Part shown: one piece after another, positions 3,001 to 64,000 of the stretch
Layout: each line of letters opens with the position of its first letter
Position numbering within the stretch: the stretch's first letter is position 1
DNA from: Fragilariopsis cylindrus CCMP1102
Lineage: Eukaryota; Bacillariophyta; Bacillariophyceae; Bacillariales; Bacillariaceae
Assembly (NCBI GenBank): GCA_900095095.1
Contig: FMBT01000310.1
Location: 248,001 to 312,000, forward strand
DNA: 64,000 bases
Direction: 5' to 3'
Made by a program: the position numbers and the translations under genes
The notes under the pieces: model-generated
The model's database searches: none
Seen by the model: only the letters and a program-made list of their open reading frames with translations
What the model was told of the DNA's origin: nothing

Positions 3001-6000
3001 GCAAACAATACCTTGTCACTAGATGTTGTAGATCGCACTGGGATGACCATTTGCGTCAACAGTATCCCAGTTGAAGTTGCAACTATTTTCTTTAACGACG
3101 CTCTTTCGTTCGTTCCGTGCTTTCAGTATAGTGAGGACAGCGAGGATGTTGTACTATTCACGTCTCCACAGCTGAAGTTTCACGTGGATTCTGCCGGTCA
3201 ATATTGCACAGATTACTACGGTATGCGACACGAGTTGATAGTATATATAAGCTCGGAAGAAATAGTACAAGATCTCAACGATGAAACTGGGTTCAAGCTC
3301 TTCAAATTATCTGAGCTACTGACCGAATCGAAGACAGTTTTTTACTATCCCGACTATCTACTTCAGGTAAATAATAGACATGACTCGTATGGACGAGATA
3401 TGTTTTCACTGCCACAAGTCCAATTTGCTCACGACTTTTCTTTTTTCATCTTGTAATAGATTCCAGACCGTTCTCAGCTCATAAATTTGTTGGATTTGGC
3501 GTTGAAGTTGAGAAATATTTCATTCTTCATTCTTGTTCTCATTTATTTGAGACGATGTTCTGTGAGACTCGAGTTTACGGAAGCTGAGGGAAAGACAAAA
3601 TACATATCCGGTCCTTGGAGAGAGGCTATCTTGTATGTTTTATGTAGGTCTGATAATTCTCACTACGATTCGATAATTCAGACCCAATTCTTTGACCTAA
3701 ATCAATATAAAGACCTTCCCCTCGATGGATTTATTGGAGTGTTGTGTGATAACTTTCAAAGATATCAACGATTTGTCGACGGGCAATGTCAAATCAAACC
3801 AACCGAGAAACAAAAATCTTTTCTGAAGAAAATAATATGCGCTGATGAATGTTTCCATTTCAGTGAAGTCGGATCCGGAAAGACTAAAGTCATACTTCCT
3901 CTCCTGTGCCAAGCTTTCCTATCGAACAACAGAGAGGTTCACAAAAATCTTTGTCGTGGTGGAAAAATGAAAGACGTTCTTGTGGTCTTAGTTCCTGAAC
4001 ATCTAGTAACTGACGCTCGCATTCAAGTATTCAGATATTGTCTGAACCTAAACTTCAAAGAGGAATATCGTGTATACGATGATATATTTGCACTCTTAAA
4101 CAAAAGCGTGCAACTGGGTTCAGAAAGTCAAAAAATCCGCAAACACATATTTGTTACATCATTTAATCAATTTAAAAAGGCCCTCACTTCTGATACGATT
4201 TGCCGTAAAGTTATGCCCCATCGTGATCATTTTTTGGTCGTCGCTGACGAGGTTGATGATTTTCTTGGTACGTTTTTGTTTTATATCTGGACGTGGAATT
4301 ATTATATTTTCTCTCTCTATTTTTATCTCTATTTCTCTCACAACTAACCTACTATGTTATGAAAATGCATCTCATAGACCGGAACAAACTTGTTTTCAAC
4401 ATATGTTCGAACAAAAGCAACTCGTTTACTCGTGGTACTCTTGATTTATTCTTCGATATTAGTCGTGCTGCTTACTTTAATTCGGTTTGCCCTGGTCATG
4501 AACTCGAGGCCTCTCCGAATCCTTTGTATTGGAAGCAGCTGTTTGAAAAATTCAGCGCCATCCACGAAGAAATCCAAGACGCTAGTCGCTCAATAAACAA
4601 GTCGTTCGGAATTTTTAACGAGAACACTTTACGGCACTGTAAAACTAATATTGCTCATGATATCGAAGGATACAAGTCTCTCATCGCGCGTCCGTACGAG
4701 TCGGTCAATCGGTATGTATAAGTGAGCGTGGAAGAGAGAGAGAGAGACTCTTTATATCATTGCTGTCATACTAACGCCATTTCTTTTCTCCCTGATCTTA
4801 GTGCAATGCCTGGATCATACTACAGCGACGTTGAACGTACAATATACTTAACCTATGTTATCTTGACAGAAGATATTTCTAAGTACAATGGATTATTTCA
4901 AGGGGAGAGAAAGTTTATCACGTTCGAGTACTGGAATGAACACTTCGCTCATCAACTGGACTTCGACGATCTAGTTTATGGACACGATAGTTTATCTGAA
5001 ATTTGTGAAAAACATCCTGAGACGAGTGACGGGCTTTCAAAATTTCTCTACGAGATCATTTTACGTCGTATGGAGATCAGAGATAAAAGTCGATCATGTA
5101 ACTCTATCGATATCATATTCAATTTTGACTGCATTGGCTTCACAGGAACACCGTTCTTAGATAACTATCCTACAGCTGACTATATTCGTCATGAACGAAG
5201 TGATGGTAAGGAATCCGTTTCGTCTTTCGTCTTCGAGTTTTCTTCTTCTTGACGTGTGTTAAAATTATTTTACGTTTTGTACTTCATTTATTCTTACACA
5301 CACGCACATTGCTCACTTATTTCCTCGCAGACATTCCTAATATGATTAACCGAGACTTTTATGCTTATACTAGTGATAAGTTACCACAGACAGAGTTCGA
5401 GGCTCGATTTGAAAGCTTCCAAGGGCAGAATAACAATGTGATTTGTCGATATGTCTCCTCCGATTTTATGAGAGCATCAACAAATGAAATGGAAACTCTT
5501 GAGGCAATCTTTGCGAAAGAAGAGGAAACGAACGTTGCATTTTCGTCCATGACTATAGCCGACAAAAATATGGATTGCGAACCAATCACCTTCAATGCTA
5601 TTGTGGATTTGTGCGGTATCTTTAAGGTAAGAAAAGAAGAAGAAAAAAAAATCGTTTGTGAATTTGAATTTATCTTTGAGCAAAATTGTGTTTATTTTCG
5701 TATTGTGTAGCCGCTACATGGTAGTTGAAATATTTTATTAACGAACCTGATGCTTCATCTTTGCTCTCAAAAGCGATCATCGATTCAAGACGTTTGCTCT
5801 TGTATTCGCAAGCTTTATGGACCTGATAGATTCCATTATATATACCACATCGACCAATCGGATAACAGCGATCGTGTACTCTGTATCAAAACAGGCAACG
5901 ATGTTCAATACGACGAGGAATTTTACAAAAAATTAACCAAGACTTATGGTGCGGATGCTCCCAATCACATATTCTTTTTCGTCGACAACCGTAACGTAAT

Positions 6001-45032: not shown

Positions 45033-48000
45033 TTACAACCCTTTTTCCTCTTTTTCCATCATATTGTCGAGACTACGTTGGATGGCCCACGCGGCGGCGG
45101 CGGCGGCAGCCGTATCGGGATCCACTCTCGTTGCGTTTTCAAAGGATCCGACGTATTCCTTGCCCGAATCATACCCAGTTTCGACTGTTTCTTCATCGTT
45201 ATCGGTAGTTACTGAAGAGCTACCTTCGGGCATCGAATCATTATCGTTACTACTGCTACTTGCAAGTATATTTTCAGAATGCTCCTCTGCTTCGGTGTCC
45301 TCGTTGACTAAACGACCAACAGCGGGCGTTGTCGATGGGGTGGAAGTAACAGTAGAAGGGAATCCTTCTTTTCTATCTCGCGATCGAGTATTCCTCCTGG
45401 CGATCTTCTGAGATTCTACTCGGGCTTTTTTGGCAACGTTCCTTTCTTTCATAGTGCGGAGTGTCTCCAAAAGCTCTTCTTCCTTTCCTTTGAACTGATT
45501 CATCATTTCGTCGACGTTGTCTACCTCATCTGGCACTGTGTCAAGGACAAGTTTTGTTACTTGCTCGCGAATCTCTTGAATGCGTTCCTTTTGAGAAGCA
45601 GATGTCGCTACTGATCGGCCCATGCTAATAGAATAATCCATGTTCGAAGTGTAGCTGCTCGTATCATTTGCATCGGAGCCTTGTGTGCTCGTCCTGGATC
45701 GGCAGGACCGACTAGCGTCTTCCCCTCCAATTGTAGAACCTCCTTCGGCATCGTATCGAGCAGCCGCGACTACGACGGCTTGCCAATCACCTGCATCGAT
45801 CAGTAGATCCAGTTCGGTAGCCTTCTGAGAAAAGTCACTTAATGTGACCGACGACGCCGATTTGCGCCGAGAGTTTGGTGATGGTGTGCCGTAAATCGAG
45901 GTAGCCATGAGGGCGGCGGTGGCTCCTACGGCTGCCCAATTACCATTAGCAATAGATGTATCCAATTCACTCAGTGAACGAATGGATTCCATTCCCACAG
46001 TGCTACCACCATCGGACGACAAGCTCGACGAGGATGGGAATGACGTAGAATCTGATAGTTTCGGAGGATTGCTAAGATCTCCCGCACGAAGTAGAGTATT
46101 ATTTGAAGGATCAATAGTCTCCTTTCTCGTTTCGGGTGAAACAATTGAGTCAGTAGCAGCTGCTATACCTGTTGTTGTTATTGCTACTACCGCTGCTGCT
46201 CCTTCAGTCACCGCTGTTGTTGTAGCTGGGTCCAGATTATTTAATTCCGAGCTTATGGAGGCTGCTATACATAGTTCAGAACTCCTACTCGCGCTCAATA
46301 ATTGTTCGCCTACAGAGCTGTGGCTATCATCATCCTCGCCGACTACGTAATCGTTGATTCCGTCCTCGTCGTAGCCGTTCTCGTGTACCTCCTTCTTTAC
46401 GTCATCTGGAGCTTCGTCAAATGAGATGAGATCGTCGCTCGCCACAACAGCTTCAGAAAGCAAATTATCTACAACCTCTCCTTCTTCTTCGCATTGTATT
46501 CCATAATTGGTTGCATATTGTGCCCACTGTGGCTAATGCTTCGACTTGGACTAGCACAGTCACTGTCAGTACTACTTTCTGTACCAATACTGAAACTACT
46601 AGAACTGGTGGCAGCAACAGGGATCAAAATTTCATGACATTCCATGGTTAAAGCCCTCAAGTCATGTGAGTTTGCGGTGTTAGTGGTCGATCCCGACACA
46701 GCGGTCCGCATCGTCCTACCCGTAATGTCCTCTATGTCACCATCATTGTTGTAGTTATCGTCGCTGTCGTAAGCGTTTCGTAATAGGTTCTTTTGGCTTA
46801 AATCAAAACCACCACTACCATCACGACAATCATCATCATTGCCATTCACACGTCGTTTATCATTACTTTTTGTCTTTTTATTTTTTCCATGCCAACCACC
46901 GTGTCGATCATTGCGTGTCCTTCGTCGAACCACCGCGAGAATGGCGACGACTGAAACCAGCAACAAACTCACCATCGCGGTACCAACAATCCCTCCTGTA
47001 CTCAGACTTATATCACGATTGATATTACCTTCGCCTGTTGCTTCCGCAGCTATGGATGAAGTAGGGTCCATTGCCGCAGAAGGTTTATCTACAGCATCGG
47101 GCAAGCCGGTATCAGTAGTGATTTCGGTTCCGATATTCGCCTCATCACCGACACCAATGATATTGCTACTGTTTTCGTCCTCAACACCAATATTGTTGTT
47201 GTTGTTGCTGCTGCTATCGTTACCTTCGTTATCATTGTCGACGGCGTTATCGCTGTTATTGTTGCTGTAGCCACCATTGCCTTCGTTATTCTCGTTGTCA
47301 ACAACGGTCTCGGTATCAACACCATTAATGTTGTTACTGTTACTGCTACTGTTACCATCATTATTAGCGTCATTACCTTCATTATCGTCATTTCCACTAT
47401 TATCAGTATCTATAATAACGGCTGGAGGGATTGTTTCAAGTCCATTCACCGTTACGATCATAACAGGTGGACCAGCCGATGAGGTTTGATCATCATTATT
47501 GTTTTTCTGACGATAATCTTCTCGTATTGCATCTTGTAATTCATTATTTGCAATAGCAGTTTCAAATGAATTTTGAAAGGCAATTAGTTCTTCTGTCATA
47601 GTACTTGGATCAACAACAACATTATTCGTTGTTGTTTTGTTGTCCTTATTACCATCACTATCATCATTGTTGTTGTTACTAACGTTGATGTCGAAGGAGC
47701 CTGTCATTTCGGTCGACGACGACGACGGTAACGCGTTCAAGTATATTCCAATCGAGGCTGTCACATCTTGACAGTTTTGATATTTTTCAGAAGGACAAGC
47801 TATACAATAAAAGAACGAATTGATAATAATAGGACGTGTGTGTGGTGTGCGATAAAGTATAATTAAAAATCAGAGAGAGAAAGAGATAGGTAAGAAGACG
47901 GATTACAACTAACTTACAACACCGATAGCAGCAACCTTGTTTTAAAAGAAAAATTCTTCTAAAATAGAAAACTTACCAGCGGGGAAGTATCCATCAACTT

Positions 48001-48591
48001 GTGTAGTAATATCACGAATAATAGTTCCTGGAAAGTATTCAGGTGCTAATCGTGTTGCTAACAAGGCCATACCACCTTGTAAATCTTGTAGGTAATCACC
48101 ATCTGAATCAGGATTAACAATAGATGCGACATATGAAACTCTTGCAACCTGATCAGGAAAATAGGATACACCAGCTGTATACCAAGATGCATTGACTTCA
48201 TCAGGATTTTCATTATGTTGTGCTGTGATGATCCCGTTGTTACTGTGATGTCATTCTTTGTTCCTCCTTCTGCAGCAGATGTAGCATCAATAGCAGCAGC
48301 AGCAGTACTGCCAATACCTATTCCAATACCATTACTACCATCTGCTGCTGCTGCTCGGAAGATTTCCGCCAGTCGTTCTTCTCCATCCTTTCCTGGTTTT
48401 AATGGATTCTTATTGAAATTACTACCGTTACCTGCTGTGTACGAATATGTTTTCATGACAATCGGCGGTGAATGATTCACATCGTCACTGTATTTACTGG
48501 AAGGTGAAACTGGAATTGCAGCTACAGTAGCTGTTGATTCAATTTCAACTTCCGAGTCTAGTACCGCTCGACGGCGAAGATGTGTCGTCAT
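45033..48591 (-). CDS. Receptor-like single-pass membrane protein with GDW repeats (member A)
   Basis: Read as one gene in two main exons: 48591 to about 47990, and about 47800-45033. The intron has a GTAAGT donor and a TAG acceptor, and the junction gives CPSEKYQNCQDV. The outer part contains ASWYTAGVSYFPDQVARVSY, a Cys pair and long Asn/Asp/Ser/Thr stretches. One membrane helix (GIVGTAMVSLLLVSVVAILAV) is followed by basic RRRTRN. The cytoplasmic tail holds two copies of an L-x-x-GxW-x-AV-x-AAA motif (SIANGNWAAVGATAA and LIDAGDWQAVVVAAARYDAE). A helical block follows (TVPDEVDNVDEMMNQFKGKE, then ELLETLRTMKERN), then a terminal AAAAWAIQRSLDNM. The frame changes near 48232 and near 46495-46510, each as if one base were missing. 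No N-terminal signal is visible, so a first exon may be missing. Function unknown; a sensor or adhesion role is inference from topology. Confidence 0.6.
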
Positions 48592-50459
48592 TTATGTCTT
48601 ACTTCTATTGTGATCCAAGTCAAAATTTTCGGGATTAGGATAGGTAAATCGTTCTTTTTCAGTTTCTATTACCGATAGCGTACAAGTCAAGTACTATAAT
48701 ATACAGTAGTATCGATGCTTTAAGATTGTTACTATTACGGTTCAACGAAATTTCGAACAGATGAAATGGAATGGAATGCGGAATAAAGCTTTTGTTTCCT
48801 CTCAGGACATCCCAAATACTAGTAGTACCGGTACGTAGGTTGTAAATAGTATATATATTATACAGTATGGATCTTGGATCGTGCTTTGTATTTTGAAAAG
48901 ACCGAACCCGCAAATAGCCAACAGAAGTCAAAGAAAACACTTATTTTATTAAATAAAATAATAGAGCGGAAGAATCTATTCGGCCGTGGGATTACTTATT
49001 ATCTGTAACTTCGTCGAATCAATGATAGTAAAATTGGTTGACACAGTCTTATTGTTAATTTAGGTATGGAAGGTTAACCGTAGTTGTTACTACTTTTATA
49101 CACTATTTTTGAAGTAGTATCGTTTCTATTTTGTTATTGGACATGGACGGTGGCCAAAGAATAACATGTGGTGTCTTTTTGTGCTTTTTTTTTTGCATTT
49201 GATCAATCTTCAGTTTGAAATAGTTACAGTTAATGCAACGCATATATGCACGCACCTTGGTGGAAAGAACGGAAGCAAGCATTAAATGAAAAATACTGGG
49301 CATAATTTATTGACGCGTATTGTATTGAAAATATTGTAAAGGCCTTCGTCATAAGCTCATTCTAACGGTCGATTATATTACAGTCGTGCTAATGGTTATT
49401 CTATAAATGTGATTCAAAAAAAGGGCTATTCACCACAAATAAAATGTATAATACGTAATACGGTATCTGATATAATCCAATGCATATTATACTATTTTTG
49501 TCTCAACAACTAGCTAGCTTCTTGATTTAACACAGTAATTATGTTGTGCCTTTGGAGTCTAATAGCAGCTTTTGACATGAGGTGTAGAACTCTACTACTA
49601 TTGAGAGGATGCATCTTGCTAGAATAGTGATACTAATATTATATTGTCTCTTATTGGGTGGTACTATAATATTATTAAATACAGTACTGCTGCTTACAGT
49701 TTAGTTGGTGGTTTTATCTTTATAGCTTTAGAAGGGGTCCCATTATCAAGGGTCTCATTATCAAGGGGTTTATCTGGTGTATTTTTTATGATACAAAGTG
49801 CAGTATCATCAGTGCCGCATAGGAATAACTTCTACTACAGTACCTACCTCTGAGCTACTGCTGCTACTGCTGCTGGAGACCTTATACTATCTTTCCTCTC
49901 ATATTATTTTGAATGGTAACAATGATTTATTTTAGTCTATTGTTGATCAATTGATTGATTAATCAGTGTTGTTTTTGTTCGAAAGAAGGTGCAAAAGGAA
50001 CAATACCATCACAAACTTACGCATTGTTTTTCTCGTTGAATTTTTGATGAGACACTATTTTGTAGAAATATTAATTTGAAGGGAAGCTTGTGAAACCCAC
50101 ACTGCAATGCACTGCACCACCTACCCATGCCATGCATGCCATGCATGGATACCAGTGCATATTCATAGAGCACGAGGAACATGCTGACACGGTATGCATA
50201 GGTGGTGATAGACACTACTTGTTTACAGGCTTTTCCATCACCTTGAATTAAAATTCGGACTACATTGTATGTACGATTAATTATTTATTGTATCACTGAT
50301 ACTTTACAACATATTATACACAGTAATAATATAACATGACATGCATTATTTATTTACATACTTGTACCGTATATTATCTGCTTCCGAGCCAAATCGGAAG
50401 GAGACAATCGATACAAACAATTTAGAAATTTTCCACGAAATTGTGCTTGGGCACGCGCC
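48592..50459. other. Long AT-rich intergenic region
   Basis: About 1.9 kb. It contains degenerate short repeats, including overlapping CATGCATG palindromes near 50128-50147. No gene recognised. Confidence 0.4.
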
Positions 50460-51106
50460 ATGCATCCAGTCTATAGCCTAACTGACGTGGAAGTTACTCC
50501 TAGCGACTTTGTGGTATTCAATATCAAGGAAGGTGTACCATATCAATTGCGGGGTGCGTTAGAATCAAAGTGGATGGTTCCTCTAAGAACCCCTGAACAG
50601 AAGAAAGCAACAAAATATGAATGGTATCACCGTGGTGGGGGCAAGGAGAGAAGATTTGCAAGGTATCACAATGGCGGGGTAAGGAGTATCAAGCTAAATA
50701 CAAGGTCAGTGAAAACGGCCGGAAGTCGCAGGATAAACGTAACGCAACGAAAAGAGCCAAAACGGCTGCTGCAAGTTTACCTGTCCCTACCTCCCAGCCT
50801 AGAAGGAATCATACGTCGGTTCCACTGGTTTTTAAGAACAATACTGCTACATCTCATTGCAAGTACCACAAGTGTCCTGGTAAGAATACAGGAGCAAAGA
50901 GAAAAAGAACTTATAAAACAGTCTTTCAGTGTGAGGTGTGTACTGTGGAAAATGGATTCCCTTTTTTCCTTTGTAATTCTACCAAGAATGTGGGTGGAAA
51001 TTTGGTAGTGGTCGATTGTCACACAGCATATCATGCAGAAATGTGTTATGATACAAGTGCTGCTACTGAATGTAGTGTTGTTTCTGATCTAACAAATAAT
51101 AAATAG
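50460..51106 (+). mobile_element. piggyBac-like DNA transposase remnant (C-terminal part)
   Basis: Two overlapping frames (50460 to about 50640, then about 50621-51106) form one piece. The end has the Cys/His pattern of piggyBac-type transposase C-termini: CKYHKCPG, then a basic KRKRTYKTVFQCEVC, then FFLCNS and CHTAYH. The first part (VEVTPSDFVVFNIKEGVPYQ, then LRTPEQKKATKYEWYH) would be the region just before this zinc domain. The catalytic Asp residues are not present, so this is at best a 3' fragment. A single missing base near 50630 would join the frames. Terminal repeats and TTAA target duplications were not identified. Confidence 0.45.
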
Positions 51107-51789
51107 ATACTTAATCTCTAATCATTAGTTTCTGTGGCGTATATTTCACTCAGAAACTTGTTCAAATTGTTCAAACGGAAAAAAATGTCAAAACGACTAC
51201 GCACGACTGGAGCCATTATATGTGTATTTGACAGGAATTCGCCGCTCTTTCTTCATACAGTGTATTTCAAATTGATGGCGAAGGATACCGTAAAAGAGAG
51301 TTATAACCATAATATGTTTTGTTACCAGTATTACTGTACAACTGCACAGCCATCACATCAATACTCTGTAAAGTAAGGATTTCTTTTCTCTCGGAAGTAC
51401 GAGACCGTCACAACTGCACCTCTATACGTTTTTATAGTAATAGGGACAAAATATATTCAGCGGGTATTCATTATTACAAGCACTGTATATACTACATACG
51501 ATTTTGTGTGGAGATAATCTTTTCCCATAACAGTACTGTAGGCAGCGACGATAACAACGACGATATGACGACAATTGCATCGACACTTCAACAAATACTA
51601 ATCATACTACAATTGCCAAAGGAGGAGACTACGCGTCGAGGACATACAACGATAGAACTGAATTCGATTCATCACAAAGTACATCCACGGAAAAATTATT
51701 GTCATCGTCGTTGTCGTCATCGTCCGTCTTCTATTAGAACAAGAACTACTGTAACAACAAAGACAACGTCAAGAAATTCAACAATAATA
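51107..51789. other. Upstream region of receptor-like member B
   Basis: The frame of member B is open back to 51319, but that stretch is basic, Thr/His-rich and lacks a leader, so I take it as 5' untranslated or promoter sequence. Confidence 0.35.
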
Positions 51790-53954
51790 ATGACGAAGTC
51801 GTCGTTTCATATAATAAATTTATTATTTGTATTTTTTGCTGCGAGTAGTATGTTATTTTGTCAGGCTCAAGAATCATCACAAAATAATAATAATAATAAT
51901 AATAATAGTAATGATTGTTATGATGATATGTATACATCGGACGAAAACGGTGATGGGAAAATTGATTCAGAAGAGTATGTAGAATTTTCACGTCGACGAT
52001 TACAATCATCATTAAGAACAATGTATTATGATGATAGGGATGATGATGAATATGTACAGGACGAATTAGATTTGCTATTATCGTCAGACTATGAAAGTTT
52101 TACTCAATTACCATCTATATTACAGCAGAATTGGTTTATTCTAGCCTGTTTATGTTCACGGTATCAATTCAACAACAACGTTGACGACGATGATAATAAT
52201 AATATTGATAATGGATTTTGTTGTGTTGGTGATAATGCTCATTTATATGTAACAACCGCTGCTGATGGTGGTATTGAAACTGTAACGAATGATAAAGAAC
52301 TTATGTATATCAATCTGGTGTGTGAATTCACTCAACGAGCAGTGGATGATGTTATATCTAATACAATTACTATAGAAGAACCTTCTTCTACGCCGTCTAC
52401 TATAACAATTACACCAACAACATCTTCTCCCACAAAGAGTCCAACACTTTCTCCAACAACATCCTCTCCTACAAAGAGTCCAACACTTTCTCCAACGTCA
52501 TCCTCTCCCACAAAGAGTCCAACATTATCTCCAACTCGAAATCCTCAGACAATAGCACCAACGCCATCACCAACACCAACACCTACTTCTACTGGTTCCC
52601 GTCCTAGCATAGAGCCAACGACAATAGAAACTAACACAACGACAATGCCAACGACAATAGAAACTAACAAAACAACAATACCAACGACAACGGTAATGCC
52701 AACGATAGCGCCAACGATATTCCCCGTCCCGTCGTTATTGCAGCCACCATCGCCATCACAGTCGTCGTCATCGCCGTCGTCATCAACAACACTTTTCGGA
52801 TTAAGTATAGGAATAATTGTAGTAATTATAGCCGGAGGTCTTCTTCTTATAATGATTCTCATTCAGGCATTAGTTTTGGTAACAACCCGTGATCATCGTC
52901 GAAGACGGAAATACCCAGTAGGTTTAGATAATGATGATGATAATGATAATAAAGAAGATGATCCGGAAGCTGGATTACCTTTACCTTCATCAAAATCGAG
53001 TGGAAAGAAGAAGGAGAGCACGACGAACGAAGAGGAGGATATCGGCACAGTAGTAACCACACCCTCCACGATAAACACTGGACTGTTAACAGCAGAAGAA
53101 GAAGCCGGAACACCACCACATTCGTCTTCTTCTTCATCTATCGTGCAACAGTCGAATCTTGGACAGCAACAGCAACAGCAAAATGAGATAAATCAACAGC
53201 AGGTGGAGGTGGAGGTGGAGGTGGAGATGGAGATGGAGTGGAGATGAACGATCAACAGAGCGATAATGAATATTTTGGTAACCAATTCTATGCCATACAT
53301 ACCACACGCGGATACGAATACATCGATTATTTCAGACGATGCAAGATCTACAGGATGTGTTTCACATGAATCCGATGCTGGTTGGTCTGAGGCTTACACA
53401 TCAAGTATGGGAAGTGTAAGTGAAACGACGACGAAATATCATTTAAATCGAATCATAATGATCATGATCTGAGTGAAGGACCTGTTCCTGCCATCACAGC
53501 AACTACAACACCGATGAGGAAGGAGACAACAATAACCTCGGATTGTCATCGATAATAGCAACCACTGCAATGGATAATACTGAAAATACTACACCCCCTG
53601 ATGAATCGATCACCGCAACCACCACCACTGCAATTCCAAATCGCCGATTGGACTGTTGGAAGATGTATTCGATAACGACGAGATAGTTATCCACGAAGAT
53701 TTTTCCGACGAAGACAACGACGATTATGACATTGATAATAACAACAACAATAACAGTAACAATAATAATGTACGATCACCGGAAGAGTTCCGTGCTGAAG
53801 TTTACGCTTTAATCGAGCGTGTTATTCCAGAAGAAATTGATCAGGCTGATGATATGATAGCACAATTACCGACCGTGAAGATGAACTGCTACAAACATTA
53901 GTAGCAATGGGAAAACGAGCATCGGCACAACATCAACTACAACAACAAGAATAA
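51790..53954 (+). CDS. Receptor-like membrane protein with EF-hand and SPT stalk (member B)
   Basis: The ATG at 51790 begins a clear signal peptide (FHIINLLFVFFAASSMLFCQ, cleaved near QA/QE). Next come an EF-hand loop DENGDGKIDSEE with all ligand positions, a Cys-containing domain (ILACLCSRYQF, GFCCVGD), and a Pro/Thr/Ser stalk with three near-identical SPTKSPTLSPT units. One membrane helix follows (LSIGIIVVIIAGGLLLIMIL), then a DHRRRRK stop-transfer. The tail has an AYTSSMGSVS piece similar to member A, and VIPEEIDQADDMIAQ then REDELLQTLVAMGKR, matching A's helical block. The tail is scattered over several frames from about 53240 to 53954, with switches near 53240, 53450, 53544, 53645 and 53866. 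All but one junction fit single missing bases. Calcium-responsive surface sensing is a plausible inference. Confidence 0.65.
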
Positions 53955-54211
53955 GATCAAACGTAAAACGAAAGCGTTATAAATAAATAATAATTGTCTT
54001 CTAAAATTACATACTGAATGTAGCGCTATTTTGTGTAGAAAATATTTTGGCTAAACAAATAATATTATAGTTAGTTAAATACATATATAAGAGCGATAAC
54101 ATCAGCTAATTCCATCGAATAGATTTCCAATTTTCAAAGTCCAAAAACACAAATAGATTCGGAACAAAGTTTGGGTTTGATCTCCATTAAAATAATTTTT
54201 TCCTTTTTTTC

Positions 54212-55970
54212 CTAATTTTTCTTTTTTGTATTATAAAGTTGTTTTGCAACATGATGTCCCATTAAATAAGCCGTCATTTGAGTACTAACGCGAGGTAAAG
54301 GGACGGCGGACAAGTCGGCGACATGAATATTATCGGAACCAAATACCTTACCCGTGAAGCACTATCATTAAGGCCTTTGTCGATGACATCACCAAAAATG
54401 CACCCCCCAGCGAGATGTTGTTCCGAGAGCAAAGTTTTGCCAGCAAAATGTTTAACGAATTCCTTAACCTGACGCCCTTTTTTATAGGGTATTTTGGTGA
54501 CAAATTGGATAAGAAAACGAACCAAAAATGGGGGTTTACTCCATTCGATTCTAAAAGATCGAGATTATCGTTGATCGCCTTTTCAGCAGTAATGGTGTCC
54601 TGTTCGTCGTCAAAGAATTGAAGAATAATCTTATTATCCTTCATTTCGTAGTACCCCTCACGAGTAGCATTGAATTTCACAAGCGAGGTTGTAATCTTGA
54701 TATCAGCAATCTTATCACCGATGGATTTCCAGCCCTTCAATGTAATTATGTCGACAATTACGAACAACACAGTAAAGATATACAGTAGTGTTTGTAGAAG
54801 CACTCGAATGGTGTTTGAAAGAAAAGTGTATACGATAGGGTATCTTCCCATGAAACGCTTGAAGTGTTGAAGGGTAAGAAGCAAAGATACAGGCTCGATA
54901 TCAAAAACAGCAACCTTAACACCTCTCCGCTAAAATAGTCAATATTAACGAATTAGCATCCCCTACGCCATTTGTGCTGCCAGGGATGATCTCGGTACTG
55001 AAGAGAGACTGGTAATTGTCAGTTGGACCAACGACTGATTTTTTCTTTTATCAACTAGGTAGATCCCAAGGGCATGCAGATGTGATCGTTCACACGCTTT
55101 CCAATCTTATCGTTACTTTTCGCGAGTACCTCTGTATGCATCAGAATCGAGGGCTCTGTGATCCTCCGCACAAAATGACCTTTCCAGTTCCCTTCTTAAC
55201 TTGATACGTGATCTCTTTGCCGGTATCGATATTCAACACCTTAACACCGGTGCACGTTGACTTTTCCATCTGCAGTTCTGTAACACGTCTATTCCAACGA
55301 AGGTCAACCTTGTTCCATTCTACCAACGAAACGCCACTATGGGTCCGCTGCCCAAATTGATTAAATTGTGTGGGAAAAATATACACCTGCTTGGAGTTTT
55401 TGTCACCAAAAGGAGATTCGGTCAAACTTGGAATGTTTTTGTCATGTGTTTTTCGGTTGGAGGCGCGTATCCCGCATTTACGTTATTCTCTATGATATAT
55501 TTCGCAAATGGCGTTTGATAACCCACTTCAAAGGGGTTAGGACGTTCGAATAATCCATTCAACTCAACCTTGCATGTGTTCCAATATCCAATGTCATGTC
55601 CAACTTGCTTTGTTAACCATTCCGAACTTTCATGGATCATGGTGTAGTTAATTGAACCACCACCACCCATCGTGCGGGCACGTCCAGCAAGTATAGAACG
55701 TCCATCGGGTGTAACAGCATTATGTAGCTTGAATATGTCACCCGATGCGTATGTTTTAGACCAACCATTTTGATGCGTAACATCAGATGTATAAAAATAA
55801 TTATGACCCTCTTCAAGCACTAATATTTTTAAATTATCATTGTGTTTGTATTTCTGTATCTCTGATAGGAATCCACAAGCTCCATTTCCGCTACCCACAA
55901 CGATAATATCAAACTCAGTATCATCAGGGATGGGGTCCTGGATATTCACCGCATTCTCATTGCGAAACAT
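54212..55970 (-). CDS. GMC-family flavin oxidoreductase, heavily frame-interrupted
   Basis: Glucose-methanol-choline family oxidases and dehydrogenases bind FAD and oxidise alcohols. The N-terminal dinucleotide fold (FDIIVVGSGNGACGFLSEI, with ILVLEEG), GMC signature 1 (AGRARTMGGGGSINYTMIHE) and a signature-2-like VILCGGSQSPR are all visible. A likely membrane helix (LYIFTVLFVIVDIITL) lies about two thirds along, as in long-chain alcohol oxidases. The C-terminus has AGGCIFGDVID, then GKVFGSDNIHVADLSAVPLP and MGHHVAKQL before a stop at 54214-54212. The pieces lie in at least six alternating frames (switches near 55425, 55155, 55070, 55000, 54890 and 54360). No intron is obvious. This is either a pseudogene or a poorly sequenced good gene; the conserved order and composition of every piece favour the latter. 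Confidence 0.75.
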
Positions 55971-56758
55971 GATTATTACACTGTTTCTTTCGTTAATACT
56001 CTTTGCTTATCTATTTTCTTTTTAGATCTATTATCTCTTATTGAATCAGATGATGACGAATCGAATCGATTTTTGTGAGATGCCGTATATTAAACGCTTG
56101 CACAGTACTGCTTTGTTTCGATGCAAAAGAATTTCGATGTGCTATGCCGGCAAAATTAACACGAATAAACTGTGCATGTACGGGTTGAATGAACAATACG
56201 TTATTCGAGTACATTGCAGTAATGAATGTTGTTCGTAGTGCAATTGTAACTATTTTCGCATACTTTTTACTGTCAATATCGGTCTACGAAATAGGAATGA
56301 GAAGATTTGAAAGAGAAGAAGTGAAAAATGAATTTTGTCCGAACTTCTCAGGCCTTTATGTGCGTTAGTCTATTGTATTAGTGAAAAGAACAATTATTGA
56401 TCAAAAACAATTCGATCATTGGAGCTTTCTTGGTTCGCCATTGCCAAAAGAATTTTCTCTTTTTTGTTTGTGCAAACTGGATTAATTATTATGAAGTAGG
56501 TTGAAGCTACTATGATGCGTCTTTTTGAGTCGCCAAGGCGAGGAAGGAATTCGCGTCAAAAGAGGGAAAGCATAAAATAATAGGGGGCCGTGAGCAGATG
56601 ATTCGAGATCCAGAGTTAGTACCCCCAAATAAAAGGATAAATGATTTTTTTTTTAGAAAAAAAATATATATATTAGCATTCGACCATCACGACAGCTCAC
56701 AGCTCATCTCGTCGACAGTTCATTGCGTGATGATTTTGTCCTCCCTCAGCATTACAAT
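55971..56758. promoter_or_regulatory. Divergent promoter region GMC / HAD
   Basis: About 790 bp between head-to-head genes. Short frames here are not convincing. No motif recognised. Confidence 0.35.
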
Positions 56759-57874
56759 ATGCTGCTACAGTATCATCATCTAACGAAGACAATATCTTAT
56801 TTCTTGGTAGCCACAGGTAGACATTATTATCGGGACAATCAGTATAATTGCATGACAAGCGCAAATACAAGAAGTGCAAACAGAATCACTAAGACAACAA
56901 CTAGTAGCATCATCAGCATGACATCGGCGGCGGCGGCGACAACCACCGCAGATTCTTCTTCGGAAGAACCATCATCATCAATAATAAGTAACAACATCAA
57001 AGCAATATTATTTGATATGGATGGAACTCTCTTGGATACTGAAAGTCTCGCCGACAAAGCAATATTAATGGCTTTGTTTGGTGGGACACACAACGTCAAT
57101 AACGCCAGTAGTAGTAGTAGTAGTAGTTCAGAAATCAATGACGATCGTTCTTTTTTGCCTGAATCGATCCGGTCTAAATCTCCCATGTCGGAATGGAGAT
57201 TACCATGGGAATTGAAGAAACAAATTCTTGGATTACGTGGAAAAGAATGGGCACCGATCTGTTTGAAATGGGCCGCCGAACAGCATTGTTGTGGTGATCC
57301 TGATGATTCGTCTTTTCAACTTCCCACAGTTCAGGAATTGATTGATTCATGGGAAGATAATTTGAATGGTATGTGCACACAAATCGAGGCCTGTTCAGGC
57401 TCTAAAGCCTTAATCGGTGCTATGATAACATCGTCATTATCGTCATCAAAGAACAAGAAAATCCCTATGGCAATTGCTACCTCTAGTAGAATGTCAGGTG
57501 TTGATAAGAAACGGATTCGACATGAACGTAATCTATTCGAGCATATTGATGTAATCGTTACTGGTGACGATGAGGCAGTTACGAATGGAAAACCAGCACC
57601 CGATATCTACATAGAGGCTGCTCGTCGTCTTAACGTCCATCCTACAGAATGTTTGGTATTTGAAGATGCACTTTCTGGTGTAAAATCTGGCAAAGCTGCA
57701 GGTTGTTACGTCGTTGCTGTTCCTGATTCAAGATTTACAGACGAAGAACGAATAAGTTTGTTCCAAAACGAGGGTGGAGCTGACGTCGTTTTAAAGAGTT
57801 TGTGGGAATTTAATGGACGACCATTTTCTATGGATTTTGATATGAAAGATATTGTACAACGAGACGACCAATAA
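56759..57874 (+). CDS. HAD-superfamily phosphatase (beta-phosphoglucomutase/GS1-like)
   Basis: An uninterrupted frame of about 371 residues from the ATG at 56759; a second ATG at 56852 is also possible. Motif I ILFDMDGTLLDTE has the nucleophile and general acid Asp pair, followed by the helical cap typical of subclass IA. Motif II is IATSSRMSG, motif III the Lys in NGKPAPDIY, and motif IV the acidic EDALSGVKSGKAAGC. The pattern resembles pseudouridine-5'-phosphatase/HDHD1, glycerol-3-phosphatase (GPP) and riboflavin-pathway phosphatases; the substrate cannot be chosen from sequence. The first 70 residues are Ser/Thr/Ala-rich and could be an organelle transit peptide. A Ser run and a WAPICLKWAAEQHCC insertion enlarge the cap. 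Confidence 0.88.
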   Translation: MLLQYHHLTKTISYFLVATGRHYYRDNQYNCMTSANTRSANRITKTTTSSIISMTSAAAATTTADSSSEEPSSSIISNNIKAILFDMDGTLLDTESLADKAILMALFGGTHNVNNASSSSSSSSEINDDRSFLPESIRSKSPMSEWRLPWELKKQILGLRGKEWAPICLKWAAEQHCCGDPDDSSFQLPTVQELIDSWEDNLNGMCTQIEACSGSKALIGAMITSSLSSSKNKKIPMAIATSSRMSGVDKKRIRHERNLFEHIDVIVTGDDEAVTNGKPAPDIYIEAARRLNVHPTECLVFEDALSGVKSGKAAGCYVVAVPDSRFTDEERISLFQNEGGADVVLKSLWEFNGRPFSMDFDMKDIVQRDDQ

Positions 57875-59569
57875 GATATCAATAAAGTTAATCAAAACAT
57901 CAATAGATTAAGATGACATTCAATATAGGATGGCGGCGACGACTGCGAAAAACGGTACCTCTGATGATGACATAAATATAGAAAAACAATCGGGACTGAC
58001 TGAATTTTTTATGATTATCAAACGATATAGGGGTATATTTTTGTACTTGTCGACATGTTTGGAAATTATTCATTCATTCATTCATTCATTCACGGGGGCT
58101 AATTTTTAAAAAGCTTCGAATCATTCCGGAGGATACTGCAAGAGGTAACTCTTTCGATTTACTCACAATGATTAGGGTTTACTTACAATGATGATTCTTA
58201 GGGGTGCACGGATTACGACGATGATGCAGATAATGATGATTATGATAATAGTCAATCTTTCCAATTCAATCCGACATCCACCAAATTTGTCATCTTTTGG
58301 ATCCCAAAATCTTCATCGTAAACTTTGCATGTTAAATACCATATCATCAAGATCATTATAATTTGCAAACCAAAAATTTACATCTCCAAATTGGATTGAT
58401 GATTCCGATTGTTGTTATTTTTTTTGTGCTAACTTTACATTCAAATTATTTATTATGGAAAACGTTATTTTGTTTCGATTCAACTTTAACGTTTATACAT
58501 ATATATGAATCTGCTCCTCCAATCAAATCCTATCAGACAATTCTATGCACTTTATACAAGTCTTACAAAAAGTTTCCCCATGTTTTTTTGTTGCTGTTGT
58601 TGACGATGTTTGCTTTTACTTATTACTGTCGATATCGTTGTCGATGCAGATTTCTTCGAATTGACTCGTGTAAATAGATTATAATTGTGAGCATGCATTT
58701 ATCAATCGAATACAGTGCAGGTGAGGGGAGTGACGAAAAATTTGATTGATTCGAGAATATAGAAATCAATCCTTTACTTTATGGTTCACCCACCCCCTCT
58801 GCTAGCTAGTTCGCTCACTTTCTATGCATACGGGTACCGGATAATTTGGCGCTGTTATATTGGACATTCTGCTCGGTTTCGCTTGGGATGTTAACGTTAC
58901 ACCGTACGTCGGTAGTAGTTTTTGAGAGCTTGCATACGACTAGATGGCTACTGTAGGTTCTGCTTCGCCGATTGGAGGCGAACAGAAAAACAAAATGAAA
59001 TGAAAAATTAAGCTTTATCATCAAAACCCGAAAATTGTAGAAAACGTGCGCGTGACGGACAAAGAAATATTTGAGAGCGTCGATATTTTTGGTGTCACCC
59101 CAATTCTGATTGGAAACAGCTTTTTCTTGATGACGCGTGTAAGGGCTTACTTTAAGTGAACGATACATTTTCAATTTGGCTTATATTCCTACGTCCTCCG
59201 GTAGTTGAAATTGATTCTAGTTCAATTTCGTAGGAGAGATTCATTCGCGATAAGATTCGATTAAATGTTGGCTATGCAATTACGTATGAGCTGTTCGAGA
59301 ATGCAGAGAAAACGTATTTTCTTTGACACTCAATGATAAAAAAAATTGTGAACGGTTTCATCTGTTTTCTGTCATGTACTTCGAAGTATAATGATGCATG
59401 CAATAATATAAGCAATAAGCCAACGAAAGAAGAAAAGAAGACACGACCAACGTTCTTTACTAACGTTAGTCTGCTCATGGGTGTATCAATATCGAAAGAA
59501 CTCTGAATAGAACTGTCTACGGATTCATAATAAAAAGCAAGACGACTAACACAAAACACAAGAAATAAT
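57875..59569. other. Long intergenic region
   Basis: About 1.7 kb. It holds an ATTC tandem at 58068-58092. A 104-codon frame at 58363-58677 is hydrophobic and Phe/Leu/Tyr-rich without a recognisable family, and I do not call it. Confidence 0.4.
58068..58092. repeat. (ATTC)n microsatellite
   Basis: Six tandem ATTC units in intergenic DNA. Confidence 0.9.
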
Positions 59570-61176
59570 ATGGTACAACCAATAGTAAATCATCATGATA
59601 GAATTAGAAGAAGCACCGGTAGTATTAAGAAACGCTATAGAACTGCTAGGAGGAGGACAAGAATAATACTCAGAACCTCCTACTTGGCTTTGTGCGCTTG
59701 TTCTCTTATTCCCTTTACTATTTGTTTCCCTGTCGATGTATCGAGATCAAAATCAATGTTGAAGACAATGCCCGTTCAGTCTTCATTACAACAGGTAATG
59801 TTACCCTCATCGTCATCTACGTCTCAGTCACTATCACAATCGCAGTCACAATCCCCAAAGAAGAAGAACAAGAACAAGATCAATAGTGATACAAATATAA
59901 CTATCACAAACGTACAGCAGCAGCAGCAGCAGCAAAGGCAGCAAGAAAGACAATTACTACCACTTCGAACGATAGAATATCGTCGTAGGAAACATGAATG
60001 GGCCAAACGATATACTAGTCAACAGGGTTTACGTGAAGCATTTGGTTCGAATCGAAATAAATTTTGGGGTGATCTGGATGCAAAAACAGCACGACGTCTC
60101 TATAAAAAATTACTCTTTCCAACAGCACTGTCAGAGCTTATTTTAGAATTGGGGGATGATGTGATTCGACCAGAAGAATTATCACCATTGGCCTATGAGG
60201 CACGTAAGGCAGCAAAGCTGTATGTGAGAGAACGATGTCGAGTTCCATCACGTGTTGGTGCATATTTATTTGATGGTATACGTCAATTTCGTAAGCATGG
60301 CAAATTTCAAATGGATGGTGTTACGTATGAACAATTATGGATTCGTTATTATCACGATCATGATATTGATGATCCTGATGACGATGGTGGATTCGGTTCT
60401 TTGTTGTTTGGTCACGATGATGATGATATTGATGTCGATGATGATGTCGATGATGATGTCGATGATGCGGTGACTGAAGAACAGATCATTATGCGTACCT
60501 GTCAAAAAATACTTGAAAAGTCGTATACAACAAATGAAGCAATTGATCGATTTTATCTGAAGAAATACAATGAGACGAAAGAACAACAAGGCGAATATAA
60601 CAACAATAGCAATAGCAATATTAGCATCAACGACGATGACAATGATGACAATTACAAAATCACCATCAAAGATCGTATCGTACGAGGAGGACGAACACAA
60701 CAAAGATGGAGGAGAAGGAGAGGACGTGTTGATCGTTACAATGATCTTCTTTTAGAGAGGATAACAAATACCCTCGAGAGGGATGTGCGTAAATTATTAC
60801 TGTCCTACTCTTCGCCATCTGAAAATGAAGATGATATTGTGAACCATCGTCTTCGTGATGGAGAGGGAATTGGAATTGACAACGAATATGATAAACGAAA
60901 TAACATCAATTACAACAACAGTAACAACACAAAGACAATGAGATGTTGTCATCTCGAAGAATGACACAACAAGAATATCATTCTTTAAAATTATTTGCAA
61001 AGGCTAGAAAATATTCCCAACAACAACAAAAACTTTCGATTGATGCAACGAAAGCTGTACATTTTAGCGATGATAATGATGATGATGATGATGATGATAG
61101 TAGCAAGAAAGACATTATCTCGTTGCGAGGTGGAGAGATAATAACAATGCAATATTCAACATCAGTTTCAAGATGA
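59570..61176 (+). CDS. Unrecognised protein with leader and conserved helical core
   Basis: The ATG at 59570 is followed by a basic N-terminus and a hydrophobic signal-like segment (TSYLALCACSLIPFTICFPV). A Ser/Gln-rich spacer then leads to a compact helical domain at residues about 145-265 (LREAFGSNRNKFWGDLDAKT, LYKKLLFPTALSELILELGD, ARKAAKLYVRERCRVPSRVG and FDGIRQFRKHGKFQMDGVTY). After that come Asp/Asn tracts and further helices (CQKILEKSYTTNEAIDRFYL). The first frame stops at 60964. A second, overlapping frame from 60943 to 61176 continues in the same style (MTQQEYHSLKLFAKARKYSQ ... ISLRGGE), so one missing base near 60940-60960 probably splits one gene. Secretion or plastid import is inferred from the leader. 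No family recognised. Confidence 0.6.
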
Positions 61177-63265
61177 AACTATAAGGTTAACATCAAGTCC
61201 ACAATCATTCCACCGCTGGGAGGTTTCCGTACACGAGAAGGTTCATTTGTGTCACAAACGACTATGACAATGCTATTGTAAATGGCCTATGAATACTTTT
61301 TGTATCGTATACGTTAACGTTGGTGTTGTTGGGACTTGACCCTGGTTATTCCTACTACCACTCATTGCAACCATGCCTCTTTGTTGCTTGCATTTGCATT
61401 GCTATTTGCTGCAAGACCACCAATAATAAACTCTGCTTTAATTTGCAGTCGTCGAATCGATTCTAAACGTTTTTTTTCATTCGTACTATTGCAACGTCAT
61501 TCATTCTTATTCCAGCATTCTGAAGTTATTGTTGTTGCTGATCCTGCTGTTGCTGTTGCTGATGCTGATGATGCAGTTTTTGACCTTGACGTTGTTGTTG
61601 ACGTGTATAGTATCTCATACATTTTGAGATATCAGACAATAGATCTCCTGGTCTTAGATGGATGAAAAAAACATACTATTGCAGAGGATCAGAAACAACG
61701 AAGTGTAATGAAGTGTAATGAAACATCGATTTTTCTCTACCACTAAGTCAAGTATGGATGTTAAATCAAACGAATGGAAACTGGAAACGCTAGCTAGCAG
61801 TACGAATTCTTCGACCCAAATAGGATGACTGTTGCTACCTTTATATTAACTAATTACAACCTTTTCACATGCCATTTTGAACCTTTGACTACTATTATTA
61901 CTCAATCACACCCATATTATAGATATTTATCAGACCAGAAATCACTCTAAATCTAATGGATGGGTAGCTTCAGAAGATAGACAGGAAAGAAGAACAGTAT
62001 AGTATGATGAGAAGAGGTCGTTGCAACATTGAGTAGTAAACAAAAAATTCAAGCAGGAAGATAAGTCACACTGATGTAATAATTGCATAGCTAGTTGCTA
62101 ATGACAGCTCCAATAGCAAACGTTACTTTGATGGTAATATCCACATAAATCTAGCCATGCATTGTATGTGTCAAATGCATTTAAAGCAATTGATTTTCTG
62201 TGAAGAGCTGAATAACTTATTCACGTACTTACCTAATACTATTTTATTCATATTGGTGATGATGTTGGTATTAGTAGAGAAGATTTCTGTGTTCTATTTG
62301 GCAGGCATTTTTTGACTATTCCTCCTGAGAATATAATGTGATTCAACTCACCTTGCTTTTTTCTCATGGAAACTTTTAGATGGAATGATCAAACACGACT
62401 CTTTTGAGAGGGCAGAGAAGATAGTTTTATCAGCTGACAATGACTTTAATCTTGTCACGCATGCCATTGGTGTTCCAAACACAAGTGGGTTTCTTCAATT
62501 TGCTGTAATCCTGGCAAGTTTTGTAATTACGAAACCAAGCACTCTTCGATTTGACATTAAGAAAAGTTTTCGCTGGATCTACAAGATTGTTCAGGATCAG
62601 ATTTGTTCAGGATCGTCTAAGCATAAAAACACCATTAACATTTTCAGATAATGAGCCACCCACATTTTGGAATGTCGGAATTCCGGGTAAAACTCATATG
62701 CGAATGGTTGGGGCGCAAACATGTTTGCTTACGGCTTTGATGAACGATTCTTGAAGCATATTGTCTACTATACCACAAATGTGTCGCATATCACTGGTGG
62801 ATGTTATCCTGTACCTGTTTATAGTACATCCATTTAATTTTGTTAGTATTCTCTTGGAGCTACAGCATACAGATACTTTCACAGAATATTGATCTTACTA
62901 ATACGTGTCTTTTCTTTTTTACTCTGTGAACGGGATTGGCAAGCATCAATTTGAGATCAAATAGATATAAGCAATAATAAATCGCCAATAATCCCAGACA
63001 GCAACAATATTCATCACTCAAGGAGTGTGCTCCAAACATATTCTAGCTAGTGCAGACGGGAAAGGAAAAGTAAGGATCAAATTAGCCTACAAAGTACTTT
63101 CACGATGATCATTCTCAATTTTTTTATCTATGAAGTACATATTTAACGGGTGGAATTTCTTTCTTTTAGACAAAGTATTAAGTAATATTAGATAATATAC
63201 ATATAGACTAATTACTAGCGTGGTGTTGCTAACATCTGGCATAACTTGAAAGTGAAGTAGATATT
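61177..63265. other. Gene-poor region with ORF scraps
   Basis: About 2.1 kb. Frames at 62385-62651 and 62551-62754 overlap and have protein-like segments (FVITKPSTLRFDIKKSFRWI; DNEPPTFWNVGIPGKTHMRM). They may be two parts of one small gene or relic split by a frame change near 62600. No family recognised. Confidence 0.3.
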
Positions 63266-64000
63266 TTATAGACTTTCACCATCACCGTCGTCTTTATCTC
63301 TCTCTTCGTTCGTATCAGCACTATCTTGATCATTATCTTCCTCTGCTTTTTGTAACGCCGCGAGACTTTGATCAATAGCCCAGTCCGCAGCTAGAGACGC
63401 ACCTTCTTCTTTCCCTTGGTCTTCTACCTTGGTTTGGTCGGCAATGGCACCCCATATCTCGGCCTGCTCGAGGGCTTCCTCCTCTTCTTTTAGCCGTTCC
63501 TCTCGTCTTTTCCTTCGTTCTTCTATTGTAGCATCATCTACGATCTCTTCTTCCGTATTATCGGGTGTACTACTTTCATTGGAACCGACTTCCGCATACC
63601 GACTAGCAGCTGCGATGACACCATCCCAGTCACCCTTGTCAACTAAAGTATTGATTTCCAAACTACGCGTCGATGATGATGCGATGGACTCACTGTCTGT
63701 ATTTTGCTCTTTGGTATTGTCACCTTCTTCGTGACCGTATGCGTGTCCAGAAAGACCAGCAGCAGCTTCCGCAACGTTCTCCCAATCTTCATTATTTATT
63801 GCCTCCTTGAGCTGAGCTTCATGGTCTTAGCTTCCTCTTCTTCATCCACTTCCATCGGGGTCTCGAGTACTAGTCCGCTAGTGGCAGCAGCAGCAGCATC
63901 ATCAAGGGCGGTAGTTTCAGAATTCTCGATCTCTTCCATCCACATATCATCAGCCGGATGGCCCGTGTTGTCAACTGCTCCAAACGCTTCTTTGTTCGAT
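63266..64000 (-). CDS. Receptor-like family member C, cytoplasmic tail (partial)
   Basis: The gene enters from beyond the right edge. The tail carries two copies of the family repeat (AINNEDWENVAEAAAGLSG and LVDKGDWDGVIAAASRYAE), then a Lys/Glu/Arg helix (ERRKRREERLKEEEEALEQA), and ends with AADWAIDQSLAALQKAEE and an Asp/Glu-rich end. These match members A and B in order. From the right edge to about 63824 the frame reads DMWMEEIEN and VLETPMEVDEEEE, then switches near 63820-63824 as if one base were missing. The membrane and outer parts are not in the window. Confidence 0.65.

What the first reader, a model, noticed from the sequence alone, without database searches (positions are those of the whole stretch)
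45033..64000. Cluster of a receptor-like protein family with GDW repeats and a WAI-x-x-SL end
Three genes within 19 kb (members A, B and C) share a cytoplasmic architecture. All or some have repeats of the form L-x-x-GDW-x-x-V-x-AAA-x-x-Y (seen twice in A and twice in C), a PDE(V/I)D-x-(V/A)D-(E/D)M(M/I) helical block (A and B), and a terminal AA-x-WAI-x-x-SL (A and C). Outside the membrane the members differ: B has an EF-hand and SPT stalk, A an Asn/Asp-rich domain. A variable outside with a conserved inside suggests a signalling or adhesion family that has expanded in diatoms. I know of no described function.
Basis: partly seen in the sequence, partly recalled or inferred. Interest (0 to 1): 0.8.

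Follow-up and report, generated by a model that had tools for sequence, protein, structure and literature searches.

The report
Diatom receptor family with GDW tails
Three neighbouring diatom genes belong to a small, apparently undescribed family of probable cell-surface proteins whose inner tails carry repeated helical "GDW" units, and traces of the same units occur in the tails of other kinds of membrane protein in the same genome.

Summary
Genes A, B and C are paralogues in a diatom genome (silicon transporters present). Their inner tails share GDW repeats (A and C), a 49-residue helical block (A, B, C) and a WAI end (A and C), all above shuffled controls. Corrections: C's helical block lies just past the window end. 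The EF-hand-like ectodomain is not peculiar to B: C and two more paralogues, D and E, have it; in A none is seen. Five receptor loci carry the block, so no expansion was seen. Beyond the window, GDW repeats sit in a second single-pass protein with another ectodomain (two clear repeats, two weak) and, degenerate, in the tail of a class C GPCR gene. A related helical block occurs twice in a PDZ protein. Pieces of D's tail DNA also recur in unrelated genes. No Pfam family above its cut-off and no convincing solved structure matches the tail units. Predicted fold, at modest confidence: a helical hairpin per repeat. Best reading: single-pass, probably Ca2+-binding receptors whose tail, with no recognised enzyme domain, is a docking platform. 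Function is inferred; distribution in other diatoms could not be tested here.

The parts
45033..48591 (-). Gene A: exon 1 about 48591-47977, intron about 47976-47800 (GT..AG), exon 2 about 47799-45033; single-pass membrane protein, no EF-hand domain seen and no signal peptide seen by eye
   Evidence: intron ends read from the sequence, no transcript
47738..48187 (-). A: presumed membrane-near ectodomain with Cys pair (CP..NCQDVTASI), across the intron
   Evidence: by eye; A scored 9.2, best of 2,000 shuffles 10.7, so not passed; coordinates
46928..46996 (-). A: transmembrane helix followed by an Arg/Lys-rich stretch (C-terminal side inside)
   Evidence: read from sequence
45894..45971 (-). A: GDW-type repeat 1 (GNW)
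45741..45818 (-). A: GDW repeat 2
45420..45566 (-). A: helical block (VPDEVDNVDEMM..GKEEELLETL)
45036..45110 (-). A: terminal WAI..SL helix
   Evidence: not found by the search with D's end
51790..53951 (+). Gene B, in reading pieces: signal-peptide-like start 51790-51870, EF-hand-like domain 51910-52359, SPT stalk from about 52429, TM 52789-52881, tail in several frames
53347..53406 (+). B: Ser-rich GWS motif also seen in the tails of C and D
   Evidence: not tested against chance
53794..53951 (+). B: helical block, split by a frame change in the window copy, open in C177
63269..64000 (-). Gene C, part inside the window (gene runs to about 67,700 in coordinates continued along the contig)
63740..63817 (-). 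C: GDW-type repeat 3 (EDW)
63584..63661 (-). C: GDW repeat 4
63422..63472 (-). C: AEIW.AIA helix
63338..63394 (-). C: terminal WAI..SL helix

Best explanation
A, B, C and their paralogues D and E are single-pass surface proteins of a diatom. Outside, B, C, D and E carry one or (E) four EF-hand-like Cys domains, probably Ca2+-binding, in B and C on a long Ser/Pro/Thr-rich stalk; C, D and E (A by eye only) have a membrane-near domain with a Cys pair. Inside, no known enzyme domain was found: GDW repeats form helical hairpins, probably with the Asp capping the second helix, and a separate helical block relates to a module in a PDZ protein. The tail most likely works as a docking platform, so that binding or Ca2+ outside is passed to adaptors inside. 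Shown: shared architecture, paralogy, no match to known tail domains, recurrence of GDW repeats in another membrane protein. Inferred: surface location, Ca2+ binding, adaptor docking, signalling.
For: Leave-one-gene-out tests: GDW repeats, helical block, WAI end of A, EF-hand-like domain in B, C, D and four copies in E at 28.0-77.1 bits against at most 11.6 in shuffles. D shows the whole order on another contig, read over three frame pieces. C796/C248: another ectodomain, a TM, and GDW-type repeats in the tail (two repeats at 21.2 and 9.6 bits with 0 of 5,000 shuffles reaching; ordered pair 16.0 bits, 0 of 20,000; E 1.6e-5 to D). Class C GPCR gene C80 (7tm_3, E 8.1e-25) with a degenerate ordered GDW pair in the tail (6.5 bits, 0 of 20,000 shuffles; E 3.8e-5 to D). 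PDZ protein C398 with two stretches related to the helical block (12.9 and 12.0 bits, 0 of 5,000 shuffles). Two AlphaFold2 models give helix-turn-helix for each of the four repeats modelled.
Against: No ligand, partner or localisation data. EF-hand matches are below Pfam cut-offs. Models are weak (mean pLDDT 65.8 and 63.6, pTM 0.30 and 0.34) and no fold matched at E <= 0.001. A shows no signal peptide by eye (no predictor was run). The membrane-near domain of C, used as a query, found only itself below E 0.5, and A's copy fails its shuffle test. In the GPCR gene single repeats are weak (8 and 36 of 20,000 shuffles reach them), another piece of the same tail shows no pair, Ser-rich linkers may feed the BLAST values, and that the 7TM exon and the tail are one gene is inferred from strand and order. 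In C796 the third and fourth repeats are reached by 7 and 520 of 5,000 shuffles. Single-repeat genome searches found neither C796 nor C80. GDW copies in C307/C146 look like recent DNA copies from D and are not independent. C changes frame in both copies.
Confidence: 0.5

Rival explanations
1. Wall or silica-vesicle linkers: the ectodomain and stalk face the silica wall or the silica deposition vesicle and the tail ties the membrane to the cytoskeleton; no signalling.
For: Ser/Pro/Thr-rich stalks and acidic Ser-rich regions are usual in diatom wall proteins (recalled); silicalemma-spanning proteins are thought to link vesicle and cytoskeleton (PMC10503012, passages seen).
Against: The SAPs of Cyclotella cryptica have SG-rich luminal parts and tails of only 58-68 residues (PMC10503012); here tails are several hundred residues with repeats (about 590 in D), and a degenerate GDW pair recurs in a class C GPCR gene.
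Confidence: 0.25
2. The tail repeats are exon fragments of little function that spread by DNA copying, and the cluster genes are decaying copies.
For: Pieces of D's tail recur in C108 (397 bp, 99.0%), C714/C395 (about 92%) and C307/C146 (72-83 bp, 84.6-90.3%); frame changes in A and B (window copy) and in C (both copies).
Against: A, C and D diverge widely in protein yet keep repeat order, helical block and WAI end; D's tail lies in an open frame of 701 residues. Gene A lies in an open frame of 895 residues in C177, so its breaks in the window copy could be sequencing or assembly error.
Confidence: 0.15
3. The GDW repeats are a divergent form of a known helical repeat (TPR-like or other) and the family is an ordinary scaffold.
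For: Predicted helix-turn-helix units of about 26 residues; TPR units also turn after helix A (recalled).
Against: No TPR or ankyrin model in Pfam matched at E <= 1 for A, C's last part, D and E pieces nor at E <= 10 for the D pair alone; no significant fold match.
Confidence: 0.1

Closest known systems
Putative diatom class C (GABA-B-like) GPCRs (Port et al. 2013, PMC3727952; passages and section 9 read)
   Same: One such gene here (C80, 7tm_3) carries a degenerate GDW pair in its tail.
   Different: A, B and C are single-pass proteins. [quoted passage not shown]
Silicalemma Associated Proteins (SAPs; PMC10503012, passages seen)
   Same: Single-pass, Ser-rich outer part, cytoplasmic C-terminus.
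   Different: C. cryptica SAP tails are 58-68 residues; here they are several hundred. No SAP sequence was compared.
MRP2/MRM2 transmembrane LRR proteins of Pseudo-nitzschia multistriata (PMC6261938, passages seen)
   Same: Diatom receptor-like proteins with a TM and no recognisable kinase domain.
   Different: Their ectodomain is LRR; no LRR matched the pieces of A, B and C scanned.
EF-hand proteins (PF00036, PF13202, PF13833)
   Same: B has a canonical-looking loop DENGDGKIDSEEY; E has four related domains.
   Different: All matches are below the curated cut-offs.

Membership tests
EF-hand Ca2+-binding proteins | Match to an EF-hand profile above its cut-off | tested here: inconclusive
   B: PF13202 15.9 bits (cut-off 25.9); E: PF00036 18.2 bits (cut-off 25.4) and PF13833 17.1 (28); D: PF00036 9.6 bits; C: none listed at E <= 0.1
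EF-hand Ca2+-binding proteins | Ca2+ binding | not testable with these tools
   needs protein
Tetratricopeptide or ankyrin repeat proteins | Match to a TPR or ankyrin profile | tested here: not met
   no such family at E <= 1, at E <= 0.1 for C's main tail, or at E <= 10 for the D pair
Receptor-like kinases or LRR receptors | Kinase or LRR domain | tested here: not met
   no such Pfam match in the scanned pieces of A, B, C, D and E; B's tail pieces after 53247 were not scanned
Class C GPCR | Seven-helix 7tm_3 domain | tested here: not met
   absent from the scanned pieces of A to E; present in C80 (E 8.1e-25), a different gene
Silicalemma Associated Proteins | Short cytoplasmic tail (58-68 residues in C. 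cryptica) after the TM | tested here: not met
   tail lengths read; definition from PMC10503012
Silicanin | Sequence similarity to Silicanin-1 | not tested
   no Silicanin sequence was compared

The most novel reading that the evidence does not exclude
The GDW pair is a diatom intracellular receptor module: different receptor types (single-pass EF-hand receptors, a second single-pass protein, and a class C GPCR) use it to reach one common set of cytosolic partners, which would give the unexplained C-termini of diatom GPCRs a shared function.
Probability: 0.3. Interest if true: 0.75.

Novelty: new variant of a known kind. Interest (0 to 1): 0.5.

Why it matters
How diatoms pass signals across the membrane is poorly known, and the C-termini of their putative class C GPCRs were reported to resemble no known proteins (PMC3727952). 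A tail module shared by several receptor types would give a handle on their signalling partners. The recurrence of exon pieces of one such gene in other genes also suggests a route by which modules could spread.

Tried and rejected
Fold search of the A model: 66 matches at E <= 10, none at E <= 0.001; among the 50 listed the highest TM-score is 0.32 and many are helical bundles; not used. A CUE/UBA-like fold for the helical block, an idea from memory: no Pfam support, and the weak model gives one long helix; dropped. PDB sequence matches of the GDW profile (AF_0060 E 0.28, a CaMKII-type chain E 0.33) and of the helical block (a cytochrome trimer E 0.003, summed over three copies; cytohesins from about 0.3) are over 14-18 residues and read as chance. 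Relatives in viral contigs: 86 and 121 pattern stretches, none confirmed; in prokaryote genomes, helical block only: 129 stretches, none confirmed. Relation of the C796 ectodomain to the EF-hand-like domain: 2.7 bits, reached by 54 of 5,000 shuffles; not taken as related, a distant tie is not excluded. Paper searches: GDW motif, repeat(s) or domain, 0 papers; six GRE hexapeptides, 1 paper on conotoxins by its listing; receptor term sets listed 11 papers in all. Only PMC3727952, PMC6261938, PMC10503012 and PMC5634323 were opened, in passages or one section; others, such as PMC11085791 and PMC8027222, were seen as listings. So 'apparently undescribed' rests on these searches of one open-access library. 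Species: diatom is shown; size and contig count are near the F. cylindrus FALCON assembly (745 contigs 59.7 Mb plus 288 contigs 9.1 Mb, PMC5634323, passages) but the species was not established.
Full report
Setting. The window is bases 248001-312000 of contig C79 in a 67.9 Mb, 818-contig genome. The Pfam silicon transporter family gives 27 matched stretches, all over the cut-off, on 11 contigs; of 14 control genomes one gives a match and none is over the cut-off. So this is a diatom. A second contig, C177 (21 kb), aligns to 45174-66586: 99.2% over 45174-50322, 93.2% over 51197-51496, 99.6% over 51499-66586, with 50323-51196 unaligned. It is a second haplotype or a duplicate.

The observation. 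Gene A (minus strand) has a GNW and a GDW repeat, the helical block and the WAI end. B (plus strand) has an EF-hand-like domain, an SPT stalk, a membrane helix and the helical block. C (minus strand) leaves the window; read along the contig, over several frame pieces, it has a hydrophobic start like a signal peptide, an EF-hand-like domain, a PT-rich stalk (PF04886, 33.0 and 37.5 bits, cut-off 26.2), a membrane-near domain with a Cys pair, a membrane helix, GDW1 and GDW2, the helical block, GDW3 and GDW4, an AEIW helix and the WAI end. D on contig C463 has the same order, over three frame pieces and with a short stalk. E, on contigs C454 and C457, has four EF-hand-like domains, one GDW and the helical block.

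More than chance. With models built without the gene under test, A's repeats score 28.7 and 16.9 bits (best of 5,000 shuffles 6.6); C's four 16.1-29.5 (best of 10,000, 14.2); D's four 20.4-29.1 (best of 5,000, 11.4); E's one 12.0 (best of 5,000, 7.1). Those models held rows of C307, which are near-copies of D; with only A, C, D and E rows the result stands: A 37.0 and 19.1 (best shuffle 6.0), C 13.7-40.2 (9.4), D 24.4-30.2 (12.4). The rows were chosen by me by reading. The helical blocks of A to E score 54.1-85.5 bits, with no shuffle of 5,000 each above 8.5 (the B row is from C177, the C row from beyond the window). The WAI end of A scores 13.7 with a two-row C+D model, best of 5,000 shuffles 7.8; a genome search with D's end found C (E 1.4e-8) but not A. 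The EF-hand-like domain: B 40.8, C 77.1, D 76.9, E 28.0-39.1 bits, best score 11.6 over 14,000 shuffles in all. The membrane-near domain is weaker: C 12.6, D 14.8 and E 18.2 against best shuffles of 10.8, 8.0 and 11.1 (2,000 each), and A 9.2 against 10.7, which does not pass; as a query C's copy found only itself below E 0.5.

Size of the family. A helical-block query matches 12 places at E <= 10: A (two contigs), C (two), D, E (two), B (C177 copy), a partial copy of E on C293, the piece on C108, and the PDZ protein C398/C405 at E 0.31. A GDW2-type query finds A, C and D only (8 places); a GDW1-type query finds A, C, D and C307/C146 (10 places). Such single-sequence searches give lower bounds. 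The EF-hand-like domain has further matches on C679 (E 2.7e-9) and C68 (E 4.9e-8) that I could not read. So the family looks small here; no expansion was seen.

The tail elsewhere. C796/C248 is a single-pass protein with another ectodomain (2.7 bits to the EF-hand-like model, reached by 54 of 5,000 shuffles) and four GDW-type repeats by eye: two are clear (21.2 and 9.6 bits, 0 of 5,000), one weak (7 of 5,000) and one no better than chance (520 of 5,000) (with a model that included other rows, only the first was clear, 2 and 19 of 5,000 shuffles reached the next two, and the fourth was missed). C80 is a class C GPCR gene (7tm_3, E 8.1e-25). Its tail matched D at E 8.7e-5 and, as query, at 3.8e-5 and 0.0017. 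Ser-rich linkers may add to those values; with linkers left out, the ordered pair of type-1 and type-2 repeats reached 6.5 bits, against at most 0.6 in 20,000 shuffles, although each repeat alone is reached by 8 and 36 of them; a control piece of the same tail further up showed no pair (372 of 20,000 shuffles reach it). With the general model the two repeats were reached by 10 and 165 of 10,000 shuffles. That the 7TM exon and the tail form one gene is inferred from order and strand. Port et al. [quoted passage not shown] The PDZ protein C398 (PF00595, 26.4 bits, cut-off 23.2) has two stretches related to the helical block (12.9 and 12.0 bits, 0 of 5,000 shuffles). I recall similar P-E-K-V...K-Y-x-G-R-E stretches in other eukaryotic proteins, but no call shows it.

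Copies of exon pieces. DNA of D's tail recurs at 99.0% over 397 bp on C108, in a 480-residue open frame with a weak MATH match (27.0 bits, cut-off 32); at about 92% over 224 columns plus 47 identical bases on C714 and C395, in coiled-coil-like frames; and at 84.6-90.3% over 72-83 bp, twice each, on C307 and C146, in a frame with RING-like Cys pairs seen by eye. That D is the donor is inferred from its complete architecture. At the ends of the C108 piece I looked only for short direct repeats; the longest was 7 bases and is not counted as a target-site duplication. These copies are not independent evidence that the module is shared.

Fold. Two AlphaFold2 models, each from two aligned window sequences, give helix-turn-helix at all four repeats modelled, with 10-residue mean pLDDT of 54-83 over the helices (a last few residues fall in blocks below that) and disordered linkers; the helical block came out in one long helix. 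Overall confidence is low. No fold match is significant. Pfam, NCBIfam and PDB sequence searches gave nothing convincing for the tail.

Reading. The best-supported account is a small family of single-pass receptors with probable Ca2+-binding ectodomains and a docking tail without a recognised enzyme domain. Architecture and paralogy are shown; location, Ca2+ binding and signalling are inferred. The main rival is a wall or silica-vesicle linker.

Noticed in passing
L021:5210-5606 (C108), L052/L053 (C714, C395), L054/L055 (C307, C146): Pieces of gene D's tail exon recur in unrelated genes at 84.6-100% DNA identity; the C108 piece is 397 bp at 99.0% inside a 480-residue open frame.
   Followed up: partly
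L059:4701-6500 and 2829-4001 (C80): Class C GPCR gene with a degenerate GDW pair in the tail.
   Followed up: partly
L060:2171-4693 (C398, also matched on C405): PDZ protein with two stretches related to the helical block (PEKV..KYRGRE).
   Followed up: partly
tails of B (53347-53406), C (64984-65031, past the window end), D (L018): A Ser-rich GWS motif shared by three tails; not tested against chance.
   Followed up: no
window 46493, 47098, 47327, 48225: Single-base length differences between the window and contig C177 inside gene A, as sequencing or assembly error or allelic damage would give.
   Followed up: partly
window 56723-57874: HAD-family hydrolase gene (PF00702, E 5.3e-22) between B and C.
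   Followed up: no
C679:277177-277566, C68:209982-210401: Further matches to the EF-hand-like ectodomain whose tails could not be read.
   Followed up: no
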